This document shows, one piece after another, positions 1,716 through 29,642 of a stretch of 47,448 bases of DNA. Positions within the stretch are counted from its first letter, which is position 1. Every line of letters starts with the position of its first letter. The notes below the pieces were generated by a model, which worked only from the letters and a program-made list of their open reading frames with translations, made no database searches and was not told the origin of the DNA. Made by a program: the position numbers and the translations under genes. This stretch comes from Zancudomyces culisetae (lineage: Eukaryota; Kickxellomycota; Harpellomycetes; Harpellales; Legeriomycetaceae), in assembly GCA_001969505.1 (NCBI GenBank), contig LSSK01000051.1, positions 1-47,448 of the forward strand. The letters are read 5' to 3'.

Positions 1716-3529
1716 ATGCTGAACAGACAACAGGGGAATAACAAGATAAAAAAAAGATTCAATTCGCTAAGTGAATTGCGACAGCATTTGAAAGGGCAGA
1801 AGGCCAAAAATAGCAATGGTAAAAACGAAGACGCTGTTACGAGTGAAATAGGAAAAAATACACAGGAGCGAGTAAATGACTTTTTTCTGAGCAAAAAGAC
1901 AAAGCAAACAAACGACGAAGAACACAACTCAATAAATAGTGTATCTGTGCACGAAAAAGTGCAAGAGCGAGCAAAAACTGATTTGCAAAAAAGCGAGAGA
2001 AAGGGAGAGGGTGAGGTGGAAAATAAGAATCCATTTTTGTTTGCAACGAATGCAAGTACTCGTGGTGCAGGAACAAGAAATGTGGCTATAAATAGGAGTG
2101 GGAGCGTGGGGAGTATATGTAAGGATCCGTTTGAAATTGTGGAATTTGTGGGAGCGAGTATTCAAAAAGAGGATAAAATTGATGTGAAAATCGATATTGA
2201 TATTACTATGGATACGGATATATATACCCTCAAGAGAAAGGCTGACTTCACACATCAAAGCGATAGTGCAGGTGAAGGTGAAGATGAAGGTGAAGAAGGA
2301 GATGTGGATGGGCATGGGGATGAAATGCTTGAGGATGCTAGCATGTATCGAGTAAATATGAGCGTTGTATCGAGTCTTAGCACGGACATGAAAACCAAGG
2401 AGGCGTATAGTACAAAAAAGGCAAAAAAAATTGAAAAAAATCTGGCTGTAGAGGTACTGAAATACATACTAGTAGAGAGTATTTGTAGAATATATACTAA
2501 CCATATTGACATAATATAAATGGGAAATAGAAAGCAGACAAGAGTAATGAAATGTATATAGATATTACTACAAAAAATAAAAGTGAGAAAAAAGAGGATA
2601 ATGAAGGGGAAAAGGGAAAAAACAGAGAAAGATATAGTGATAGTGATATTACTGACGTGGTTGGCGTAGTGGGAAACAATTCAATGGTGACAGAGATAAT
2701 ACGATTTATAATAAGCGAGCCAACACAAGACCTTTTGGAGATGACACAAGAACACGCAATATTAAAATACGGCAAGTACTATCAAGAGCGTGGCAACAAA
2801 TGGACGGATAAAAAGTCAGAAGCGATTGGAGAGATTTTGAATAAGCTGTGTGTATTCTATTATCAACAGGAAAATAGGGATAGAGCTGGATATGGAGGAG
2901 GGGTGATAGAAAAGGAGGAGGATGAGGAGTGGGAGGAGAGTATCAGGATGCTGGATACAATGATGAAGAGGAAGGTGGAACAAGAGAAAAGTAAATATGG
3001 AAATAGTGATAGAAATGGAAATGAAAATGAAAATGAAAATATAGAGATAAATGGAGGTGGCGGTGATGAAGAGATGTACTTTGTGGTACTTGTTGACGAT
3101 ATCGGGTATGAGTTTAAAAAATTGAAGGATAAGAGAAGGGTAAGAATATATGGGAGGGGAGTAGGTGGAGGATATATGAAAGTGCTTAGTAAAAAAGGGA
3201 TAGTGTATAAGCAAAATACGAAAGAAAGAGAAGAGGGAAAGAATAGGCGGGTGAAGGAGATAGAGAAGGAAATAGAGTTGGAAGTGGTTGGAGAGCAGAG
3301 TATTGCAAGAATTATAGAGTCCGAGATACTAAAAAGAAGAGGAAAAATGGGAATCGGGAGGGAGATAATCAGCAACGAACTATTTGTTAATGGACAATAT
3401 AAAGTACCAAAAATCGAAATCAAAAGACAAAAGACGAATTATGGTAACAAAGAATATAGAGTCGAGATAAGTAAATTAAAGATAATGAGAGATAAAGAAA
3501 AGGAAGTGATTAGTAGACATATGGAATGA
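1716..3529 (+). CDS. Unknown charged protein with a PIP-box-like motif, two exons
   Basis: Two consecutive plus-strand frames, 1716-2519 and 2552-3529, are best read as one gene. A perfect TACTAAC branch-site motif lies at 2495-2501, and the second frame is open from exactly after the acceptor TAG at 2530. Donors consistent in phase are GTACTG (2454) or GTAGAG (2472) with acceptor 2530, or GTATTT (2479) with the CAG at 2537. The product is about 578-585 residues. Near residue 50 is Q-E-R-V-N-D-F-F followed by basic residues, which fits a PCNA-interacting (PIP) box with Val at the usual Ile/Leu/Met position. The rest is very rich in Lys, Glu, Asn and Gly, with a short NENENEN repeat from 3018. 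I recognise no enzymatic domain. A replication or repair role is only a guess from the motif. Its 3' end overlaps the sterol reductase gene. Confidence 0.65.
2454..2530 (+). other. Probable intron (exact donor uncertain)
   Basis: TACTAAC at 2495-2501 with acceptor TAG ending at 2530. The donor may be 2454 or 2472. The pair 2479/2537 also keeps the frame. The two alternatives with acceptor 2530 differ by six codons. Confidence 0.5.
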
Positions 3530-4983
3530 GCTTGTAAGGGACACGGCGGCAGTATTCGTCCCAGTAGACCCCATACTTGAGGCGACAACGATCATTATCA
3601 CGGGAGATGCGGTGGACGAGGAGAACAGTCATGTAGAAGAGGTAGTAGAAGGGGATAAAGTCAAAGGAGGCGCAAGAGGCACCGAAGGCGAAACACATCA
3701 GTAGATCACCGACGTAGTTAAAGTGGCGGGAGAGACCCCAGAATCCGCAGGTAAGTAGGATGGATTTGTGGGGTTTTCCATCAGCAGTGCGATACTCGGC
3801 GCGGATAAAGGTAGGTGGTTTGCCGAAAATGAGGCAACGGCCGTTTGTTTTGCGAACAATATCCTTTTGATTGTTTGCGTTGCGGAAGATATAGTAGCCT
3901 ACAAGACCAATGGAGAGAATGAGGATAAAGTAAGGAGTGGAGAGATCGACTGGGTTGCGGAAGATGTAGAATGATTGCAGAGTGTAGGTGAAAGGTAGCC
4001 AGACACAGTCTCCCCATGCTAGATAGTAACCAAAGTGGTCGTGGGCAATGTCGATTGTGCGTAGGTACCAGTCTTCAAAGTAGAAAAAGTCGACAACGTA
4101 TATTGCGTGCAAAATGTTGAGCAAGACCATCGCATTGGTAACATAGCCAAGCTGCTTGTACTGTGCAGCACCAAAACTAAAGTTGATGAGTGTCCAAGCA
4201 ACAATACCTGGTCGGCCGTTAAATACTAGCTTGAAGTCGAACCATTGGCCAATTCGTGGGTTTAGTTCAATTCCCATACAGTAGTCGTAGATTTTTGAGC
4301 CCGAAAACTTGCGGTCTTCTGGATGTGATGGTGCGATATGTGCCTTCATGTATACAAACAGCGACAACGCCAACCCAACAATATTAGTAGCTACCAAGAA
4401 ACCTCCCCAGTGCACGCAGATGTAGTCCAACCCATATGCCTCGTTTGACAGCACGCTACCAGCTATATATACCACATGTGTGGCTATCCACACATATAAC
4501 CCATTGATTCTGTATTTCAACACATGACCAGCTGGTGTGCTTTGTCCGAGCCCAATCTTGCGCACCGGGAAGTACAGGTACATTGCAAAGTTATACACGA
4601 GCCAGCACAAATATACACATAGTGCCTCGCGGTCAGCTAGTACTACATCTGTAAAGATCTTGTATACTCCTGCTCCAATCATTTCAATCAATCCTCCATT
4701 CGTGCTGCTAACAATCTCGTCTTGGAAATTCTGCACTACGTTGAAGAAGTCCACTATTGGACCCGTTGTTATTGAACACTGGTAGTATGTGCAGCTAGCC
4801 CACAAATACGCTGCCCAAAATGGTGCAAAGGCGAACAGCCCGAGTGTCAAAGCGATTGTGATCACTGTTGCGTCTATTAGCCAGGATATTCATATTATAG
4901 CTGTTACTTTGCGAAAATTCGGGGTACTTACCTGTTGCTCTTCCCCAAAGCTCCAACTTTTTCTTTTCCTGATTCTTTGCCAT
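3510..4983 (-). CDS. DHCR7: Sterol delta-7 reductase (7-dehydrocholesterol reductase type)
   Basis: Reduces the C7-C8 double bond of sterols with NADPH; a multi-pass ER membrane enzyme of the ERG4/ERG24 family. Exon 1 is 4983-4932 (17 codons and one base) and exon 2 is 4864-3510, giving 468 residues, close to the 475 of the human enzyme. The alignment to DHCR7 recalled from knowledge is close throughout: MGIELNPRIGQWFDFK at about 214-229, then FNGRPGIVAWTLIN, WYLRTIDIAHDHFGYYLAWG and FWGLSRHFNYVGD. The family signature LLVHRISRDNDRCRLKYG lies near residue 432 and the end is PYVY. These stretches match DHCR7 rather than the delta-14 (ERG24) or delta-24(28) (ERG4) reductases. Ergosterol keeps its delta-7 bond, so this enzyme is unexpected in a yeast. 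A TATA-like GTATATAAT lies about 75-80 bp upstream (5057-5065). The 3' end overlaps the convergent gene by 20 bp. Confidence 0.93.
4866..4931 (-). other. Intron in the sterol delta-7 reductase gene
   Basis: 66 bp. The donor is GTAAGT at 4931 and the acceptor CAACAG ends at 4865. The likely branch site GGCTAAT (4882-4876) lies very close to the acceptor. Removing it joins exon 1 in phase to the conserved start of the membrane domain. An upstream TAG (4875-4874) would add three in-frame residues. Confidence 0.85.
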
Positions 4984-29230: not shown

Positions 29231-29642
29231 NNNNNNNNNNNNNNNNNNNNNNNNNNNNNNNNNNNNNNNNNNNNNNNNNNNNNNNNNNNNNNNNNNNNNN
29301 NNNNNNNNNNNNNNNNNNNNNNNNNNNNNNNNNNNNNNNNNNNNNNNNNNNNNNNNNNNNNNNNNNNNNNNNNNNNNNNNNNNNNNNNNNNNNNNNNNNN
29401 NNNNNNNNNNNNNNNNNNNNNNNNNNNNNNNNNNNNNNNNNNNNNNNNNNNNNNNNNNNNNNNNNNNNNNNNNNNNNNNNNNNNNNNNNNNNNNNNNNNN
29501 NNNNNNNNNNNNNNNNNNNNNNNNNNNNNNNNNNNNNNNNNNNNNNNNNNNNNNNNNNNNNNNNNNNNNNNNNNNNNNNNNNNNNNNNNNNNNNNNNNNN
29601 NNNNNNNNNNNNNNNNNNNNNNNNNNNNNNNNNNNNNNNNNN
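29231..29642. other. Assembly gap (412 Ns)
   Basis: Unknown sequence. Reading frames that cross it are meaningless. The stated length may be an estimate. Confidence 0.98.

What the first reader, a model, noticed from the sequence alone, without database searches (positions are those of the whole stretch)
3510..4983. A DHCR7-type sterol delta-7 reductase in what looks like a yeast
Seen: DHCR7-specific stretches and both ERG4/ERG24 family signatures, in a spliced gene set among ordinary fungal genes. Known: ergosterol keeps its delta-7 bond; DHCR7 is typical of animals, plants and some early-diverging fungi or protists. Inference: this organism may make delta-7-saturated sterols (brassicasterol-, campesterol- or cholesterol-like), or reduce sterols taken from a host or diet. 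The gene may be an ancestral retention or a horizontal transfer.
Basis: partly seen in the sequence, partly recalled or inferred. Interest (0 to 1): 0.78.

Follow-up and report, generated by a model that had tools for sequence, protein, structure and literature searches.

The report
Sterol Δ7-reductase in mosquito-gut fungus
The gene looks like a genuine, intact sterol Δ7-reductase of the animal/plant (DHCR7) type, but it belongs to a mosquito-gut fungus from an old fungal branch where such genes are usual, not to a yeast; its main interest is that it predicts which sterols this insect symbiont makes.

Summary
Window 3510-4983 (- strand) encodes a two-exon, 471-residue DHCR7-type sterol Δ7-reductase (468 residues if a splice acceptor 9 bases further on is used). 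The host does not hold: the window is a contig of Zancudomyces culisetae (Harpellales), a gut symbiont of mosquito larvae, and NCBI already names the protein 7-dehydrocholesterol reductase. DHCR7 is reported from most early-diverging fungi; the tree puts this copy with five Smittium orthologues in a weakly supported Zoopagomycota group, which favours ancestral retention over horizontal transfer. In the held, incomplete assembly (23.1 Mb) I found ERG9, oxidosqualene cyclase, CYP51, ERG24, ERG25, ERG6, EBP and ERG3 homologues, but no ERG2, ERG4, ERG5, DHCR24 or squalene epoxidase. That set predicts Δ5 sterols, chiefly 24-methylenecholesterol, not ergosterol. Kickxellales, several of which are reported with the Δ5,7 sterol 22-dihydroergosterol, gave no DHCR7 among the listed hits. 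A 2010 survey lists Harpellales with 22-dihydroergosterol in its abstract, yet its text says none was analysed. Against: Dimargaritales and Zoopagales carry the gene but are reported with Δ5,7 sterols. Sterol GC-MS of axenic cultures would decide. Ordinary gene, modest testable lead.

The parts
4932..4983 (-). DHCR7 exon 1 (ATG at 4983-4981)
4874..4931 (-). 58-nt intron, GTAAGT...TAG; acceptor giving the 471-aa protein
   Evidence: product identical to P0001; spacing matches Smittium orthologues
3510..4873 (-). DHCR7 exon 2 with stop TAA at 3512-3510; sterol reductase domain PF01222
4254..4301 (-). first ERG4/ERG24-family signature GSKIYDYCMGIELNPR (residues 209-224)
   Evidence: pattern from memory, loosened; coordinates calculated from the exon map
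3570..3620 (-). second ERG4/ERG24-family signature LVHRISRDNDRCRLKYG (residues 436-452)
   Evidence: pattern from memory; coordinates calculated from the exon map

Best explanation
A native, vertically inherited sterol Δ7-reductase (DHCR7 orthologue) of Zancudomyces culisetae. It most likely reduces the C7=C8 double bond of Δ5,7-sterols with NADPH, at the end of a sterol pathway that runs through CYP51, ERG24, ERG25, ERG6, EBP (in place of ERG2) and ERG3. With no ERG5, ERG4 or DHCR24 found, the predicted main product is a Δ5 24-methylene sterol (24-methylenecholesterol), or its 24-methyl form if an unfound reductase acts. Shown: gene, family, lineage, gene inventory of the held assembly. Inferred: activity, substrate, product.
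For: PF01222 at 2.4e-87; 116 of 120 near-invariant DHCR7 columns kept and 22 of 23 type-specific columns of DHCR7 type; 53% identity to the Mortierella alpina row P0021, a species whose DHCR7 was shown to act in desmosterol production (reported in PMC10629195, passages; that P0021 is that very enzyme is assumed). DHCR7 rows separate from ERG24 rows at 100/100 and the query sits with five Smittium rows at 100/100. Inventory: ERG24, CYP51, ERG25-like and ERG3-like, ERG6, EBP, oxidosqualene cyclase, ERG9-like. Deleting ERG4 and ERG5 and adding a DHCR7 or DWF5 is the design used to make Yarrowia produce 24-methylenecholesterol (PMC12507675, passages).
Against: No squalene epoxidase was found, so de novo synthesis is not complete in the held sequence. 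Weete 2010's abstract gives Harpellales 22-dihydroergosterol, a Δ5,7 sterol, though its text says no Harpellales was analysed. Dimargaritales and Zoopagales also have DHCR7 but that paper reports them with Δ5,7 sterols, so gene presence does not always match the reported chemistry. The held assembly is 23.1 Mb against 27-29 Mb published, so absences are weak. The query departs from 4 near-invariant columns (median 1; 17 of 95 rows have 4 or more).
Confidence: 0.78

Rival explanations
1. The enzyme works mainly in salvage: the fungus takes up sterols from the larval gut and reduces Δ5,7 ones (for example ergosterol of ingested fungi), rather than finishing a pathway of its own.
For: Squalene epoxidase was not found by PF08491, by a yeast Erg1 query or among PF01494 matches. 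[quoted passage not shown] Phytophthora species, sterol auxotrophs, keep a DHCR7 gene reported to have several functions (PMC8984297, start of abstract in the search listing).
Against: Homologues of ERG9, oxidosqualene cyclase, CYP51, ERG24, ERG25, ERG6, EBP and ERG3 are all present; an auxotroph would be expected to lose most of them. The assembly is incomplete, so the missing epoxidase may lie elsewhere.
Confidence: 0.15
2. The gene is expressed little or acts only on a minor flux, and the end product is 22-dihydroergosterol (Δ5,7), as the abstract of Weete 2010 states for the group.
For: Abstract of PMC2878339. Dimargaritales and Zoopagales have DHCR7 rows yet are reported with Δ5,7 sterols.
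Against: The same paper's text says no Harpellales was analysed; sequence constraint on the protein is high; Kickxellales, several species of which were measured with 22-dihydroergosterol, gave no named DHCR7 row among the listed hits. 22-dihydroergosterol also needs a C24(28) reduction, and no ERG4 was found.
Confidence: 0.1
3. It is an ERG24 (C14) or ERG4 (C24(28)) reductase misnamed as DHCR7.
For: Same Pfam family; the two PDB relatives found are both named Delta(14)-sterol reductase.
Against: 0 of 23 type-specific columns are of ERG24 type; tree 100/100; the genome has a separate ERG24. ERG4 rows were not put in the tree.
Confidence: 0.01
4. Horizontal transfer into Harpellales, or contamination of the assembly.
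For: In the 62-row tree the Harpellales rows join Massospora and Neoconidiobolus rather than Dimargaritales at 99/97.
Against: That branch falls to 82/53 in the 39-row tree, and a Harpellales+Dimargaritales clade is not rejected (p-AU 0.329); five Smittium species carry orthologues; the gene is spliced and its contig bears genes with eukaryotic domains, among them Tim54 and a tubulin chaperone.
Confidence: 0.02

Closest known systems
7-dehydrocholesterol reductase / sterol Δ7-reductase of early-diverging fungi (e.g. Mortierella alpina; P0021)
   Same: Same family, length and conserved columns; 53% identity; same clade against ERG24.
   Different: Longer branch in the tree; 4 departures from near-invariant columns; activity untested.
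DHCR7 of Smittium species (P0002-P0006)
   Same: Orthologues, 58-61% identity, one clade at 100/100.
   Different: Only sequence divergence seen; their genomes were not examined.
ERG24 sterol C14-reductase (same genome: contigs C427 and C460)
   Same: Same family PF01222 and shared invariant residues.
   Different: Separate clade and 23 type-specific columns.
PDB 4quv (bacterial sterol reductase MaSR1; name and source recalled)
   Same: Best solved relative, E 7.3e-67.
   Different: Deposited as a Delta(14)-sterol reductase.

Membership tests
DHCR7 sterol Δ7-reductase | PF01222 domain over most of the protein | tested here: met
   E 2.4e-87, profile positions 53-432 of 432, from exon 2
DHCR7 sterol Δ7-reductase | Groups with DHCR7, not ERG24, in a tree | tested here: met
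   51 DHCR7-type rows (query included) against 11 ERG24 rows, 100/100; ERG4, plant and animal rows not included
DHCR7 sterol Δ7-reductase | DHCR7-specific residues | tested here: met
   22 of 23 type-specific columns; the columns come from hits of the query itself and of the genome's ERG24
DHCR7 sterol Δ7-reductase | Conserved cofactor-end residues shared by the family | tested here: met
   K354, R358, W396, R439, Y451, Y458 are among the shared invariant columns; their equivalence to MaSR1 NADPH-site residues is recalled
DHCR7 sterol Δ7-reductase | NADPH-dependent reduction of the Δ7 bond | not testable with these tools
   needs expression and sterol analysis
ERG24 C14-reductase | ERG24-type residues at type-specific columns | tested here: not met
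   0 of 23
ERG4 C24(28)-reductase | Groups with ERG4 rows | not tested
   I saw no row named as a C24(28)-reductase among the listed hits and put none in the tree
Ergosterol pathway in this genome | ERG5 (CYP61) and ERG4 present | tested here: not met
24-methylenecholesterol-type pathway | ERG6, ERG3 and DHCR7 present; ERG4, ERG5 and DHCR24 absent | tested here: inconclusive
   pattern met in the held 23.1 Mb, which is not the whole genome

The most novel reading that the evidence does not exclude
Z. culisetae is by nature what was built in yeast for honeybees: a fungus without ERG4 and ERG5 but with DHCR7, making 24-methylenecholesterol, the Δ5 sterol that dominates in honeybee pupae. As a gut symbiont of mosquito larvae, which like other insects cannot make sterols, it could supply its host with usable sterol, and the ergosterol-type entry for Harpellales in the literature would be wrong.
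Probability: 0.15. Interest if true: 0.6.

Novelty: already known. Interest (0 to 1): 0.3.

Why it matters
The gene by itself adds little: NCBI annotates it, and DHCR7 in early-diverging fungi is in print. What it adds is a prediction about an order whose sterols are, according to the text of a 2010 survey, unmeasured. If Harpellales make Δ5 sterols while the related Kickxellales make a Δ5,7 sterol, gain and loss of one gene could explain a split in fungal membrane chemistry, and a symbiont of disease-carrying mosquitoes would make sterols of a kind that insects can use. It would also mean that ergosterol cannot serve as a biomass marker for these fungi.

Tried and rejected
Yeast host: rejected by the contig match and name. 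ERG24 identity: rejected. Horizontal transfer from or with Entomophthorales: suggested by one branch, not held up (82/53; p-AU 0.329). An alternative squalene epoxidase of the fatty-acid-hydroxylase family: the 9 PF04116 matches read to me as ERG25-like (4), cytochrome-b5 fatty acid 2-hydroxylase-like (3) and one ERG3-like gene in two pieces (Pfam run on 5 of the 8 genes). The PF01494 matches are two kynurenine-monooxygenase-like genes by my reading, not squalene epoxidase. FAD_binding_4 matches read as D-2-hydroxyglutarate/glycolate-oxidase-like and lactone-oxidase-like, not DHCR24 (NCBIfam on one of them, below cut-off). The ERG2 search gave nothing, but nothing rang in its controls either; the yeast Erg1 query had no control. 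NCBIfam did not name the P450s or reductases. Rfam, tRNA and tandem-repeat scans of the window showed nothing bearing on the gene. Paper searches pairing Harpellales, Smittium, Trichomycetes or Kickxellomycotina with sterols or DHCR7 listed no study of this; most of the papers listed were seen as listings only. Horn and Lichtwardt 1981 on nutrition of Aedes larvae with Smittium culisetae was seen only as a citation; that it touched on sterols is my recollection. Starr et al. 1979 on sterols of cultured Trichomycetes is recalled only; a search for part of its title found no paper. Not run: structure prediction, the third protein search.

Full report
What is there. The gene lies on the - strand at 3510-4983: exon 1 4983-4932, a 58-nt intron 4931-4874, exon 2 4873-3513 and stop 3512-3510. 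The product of 471 residues is identical to NCBI protein P0001. The gene's 3' end overlaps by 20 bases the end of a convergent + strand open frame that stops at 3527-3529.

Whose it is. The best hit is '7-dehydrocholesterol reductase [Zancudomyces culisetae]' on a contig of 47,448 bases, the length of the window; it is listed at 99% because I searched the 468-residue form. NCBI taxonomy places the species in Harpellales, Kickxellomycotina. The published Illumina draft is 28.70 Mb (PMC5954228, passages) and a HiFi assembly 27.2 Mb (PMC12611240, outline, a third of one section and passages). The genome held here has 23.1 Mb in 859 contigs. The window's GC is 36.4% against about 35.5% published for the genome. 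It is not a yeast. Neighbouring genes bear eukaryotic domains (serine/threonine phosphatase, mitochondrial carrier, tubulin chaperone D, Tim54, a kinase).

What family. PF01222 matches at 2.4e-87; the closest solved structures are 4quv (7.3e-67) and 9l5r (3.3e-48), both named Delta(14)-sterol reductase. To tell DHCR7 from ERG24 I aligned 95 of the 120 listed hits (length 440-520, the query's own protein included) with 107 of the 120 listed hits of an ERG24 search (length 420-520). Of 120 columns that are at least 95% one residue in the other 94 DHCR7-type rows the query has that residue in 116; of 23 type-specific columns (at least 90% in one set, at least 70% in the other) it has the DHCR7 residue in 22 and the ERG24 residue in none. 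It departs from 4 near-invariant columns; the median row departs from 1, and 17 of 95 rows from 4 or more. In a tree of 62 rows chosen by hand (51 of the 120 DHCR7-type hits, 11 of the 120 ERG24 hits) the two types separate at 100/100. No plant, animal or ERG4 row is in the tree.

Where it came from. The query groups with five Smittium rows at 100/100, inside a group of Harpellales, Dimargaritales, Entomophthorales, Basidiobolus, Zoopagales and one unnamed row, supported only at 80/71 and 92/95. This is what vertical descent in Zoopagomycota would give. One branch does not fit the named groups: Harpellales join Massospora and Neoconidiobolus at 99/97. In a 39-row tree, from which I dropped the ERG24, Dikarya, slime-mould and aphelid rows and five chytrid or blastoclad rows, it falls to 82/53, and holding Harpellales with Dimargaritales is not rejected (p-AU 0.329). 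I take it as weak resolution. Of the 120 hits, 70 carry an organism name, and none of these names is of Kickxellales; of the 120 hits, 25 are Kickxellales by name (both counted by eye from the listings). A Kickxellales DHCR7 should have ranked above the 463 bits of row 120, so loss in Kickxellales is likely; but only 120 of 897 hits were shown and 50 of those bear no organism.

The rest of the pathway. Found in the held assembly: ERG9-like (C389); an oxidosqualene cyclase, closer to human lanosterol synthase (1.2e-107) than to squalene-hopene cyclase (7e-25); CYP51 (4.8e-136 to 5v5z); ERG24 (3.8e-96 to 9l5r); ERG25-like genes on C503 (two), C573 and C117, and an ERG3-like gene on C846 (assigned by my reading of the motifs); ERG6; four matches to the EBP (EXPERA) family, one of them at 2.2e-43 to human EBP (the other three may have other functions). 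Not found: squalene epoxidase (PF08491, with two control genomes ringing; yeast Erg1, without control; PF01494 gave only two kynurenine-monooxygenase-like genes); ERG2 (no control rang); ERG4 (PF01222 gives only DHCR7 and ERG24); DHCR24 (what the matches are); ERG5 (25 P450 matches; best match to yeast Erg5 over 100 residues or more 25%, over 132 residues; the CYP51 locus 20% over 536).

How it most likely works. ERG3 makes the Δ5,7 diene; DHCR7 removes the Δ7 bond with NADPH, giving Δ5 sterols. ERG6 adds the 24-methylene carbon. With ERG4, DHCR24 and ERG5 not found, 24-methylenecholesterol is the expected main product. The same combination - ERG4 and ERG5 deleted, DHCR7 or DWF5 added - was used to make Yarrowia lipolytica produce 24-methylenecholesterol, which makes up 60-70% of the sterols of honeybee pupae (PMC12507675, passages). 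Insects have lost sterol biosynthesis (PMC11591786, start of abstract in a listing). Activity, product and any use by mosquitoes are inferred.

What is known. PMC11323496 (passages) says that most early-diverging fungi lack Erg5 and harbour DHCR7, citing Weete 2010 and Amses 2022, and that mucoralean genomes do not encode it. PMC10629195 (passages) reports DHCR7 in Glomeromycotina, Mortierellomycotina, Blastocladiomycota and Endogonales. Amses 2022 is not held, so whether it scored Harpellales is unknown to me. Weete 2010 (whole main text; [quoted passage not shown] It gives several Kickxellales 22-dihydroergosterol, and Entomophthorales and Basidiobolus 24-methyl cholesterol. Set beside the named hits, DHCR7 presence agrees with Δ5 sterols in Entomophthorales, Basidiobolus, Mortierellales, Glomeromycota, chytrids, Blastocladiomycota (one of three analysed species accumulates lanosterol) and Protomyces; its apparent absence agrees with Δ5,7 sterols in Kickxellales. 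Two groups disagree: Dimargaritales carry the gene but are reported with 22-dihydroergosterol (abstract) or, as most of their clade, ergosterol (text); Zoopagales (Syncephalis) carry it but are reported with ergosterol. Both are mycoparasites (recalled), so host sterol may explain it; this is a guess. A few Dikarya (Saitoella, Protomyces, Coleophoma, Botryobasidium) also appear among the hits.

Verdict. The sequence observation is right, the host wrong, the gene ordinary for its lineage and already annotated. What remains is a clear, untested prediction of the sterols of a mosquito symbiont, and one gap, squalene epoxidase, that the held data cannot close.

Noticed in passing
G000 (own genome): No squalene epoxidase in the held assembly although ERG9-like and oxidosqualene cyclase genes are present; no COQ6-like gene among the PF01494 matches either, by my reading. 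Missing sequence or a real gap.
   Followed up: partly
L017-L031 and L034 (P450 loci): Sixteen loci fall in one divergent P450 family by BLASTP linkage, the longer frames 534-607 aa; a heme-like motif WGxGxRxC was seen in 9 of the 14 loci scanned, L017-L030.
   Followed up: partly
L009/L010, L038/L039, L040/L041, L045/L046, L051/L052, L019/L020, L022/L023: Seven contig pairs, picked because they looked alike, are 98.9-99.9% identical over about 2.9-3.9 kb, as allelic or recently duplicated copies would be. DHCR7 was found once.
   Followed up: partly
G000:C503, C573, C117: ERG25-like sterol 4-methyl oxidase genes: two on C503 in the same orientation about 2 kb apart, plus a near-identical pair of contigs.
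   Followed up: no
window 3510-3529: Convergent overlap of 20 bases between the 3' ends of DHCR7 (-) and a + strand open frame that runs to 3529.
   Followed up: no
window 29231-29642: A run of 412 N, which explains the cluster of spurious open frames there.
   Followed up: yes
PMC2878339: Abstract and text of the fungal sterol survey disagree on Harpellales: listed with 22-dihydroergosterol, then said not to have been analysed.
   Followed up: yes
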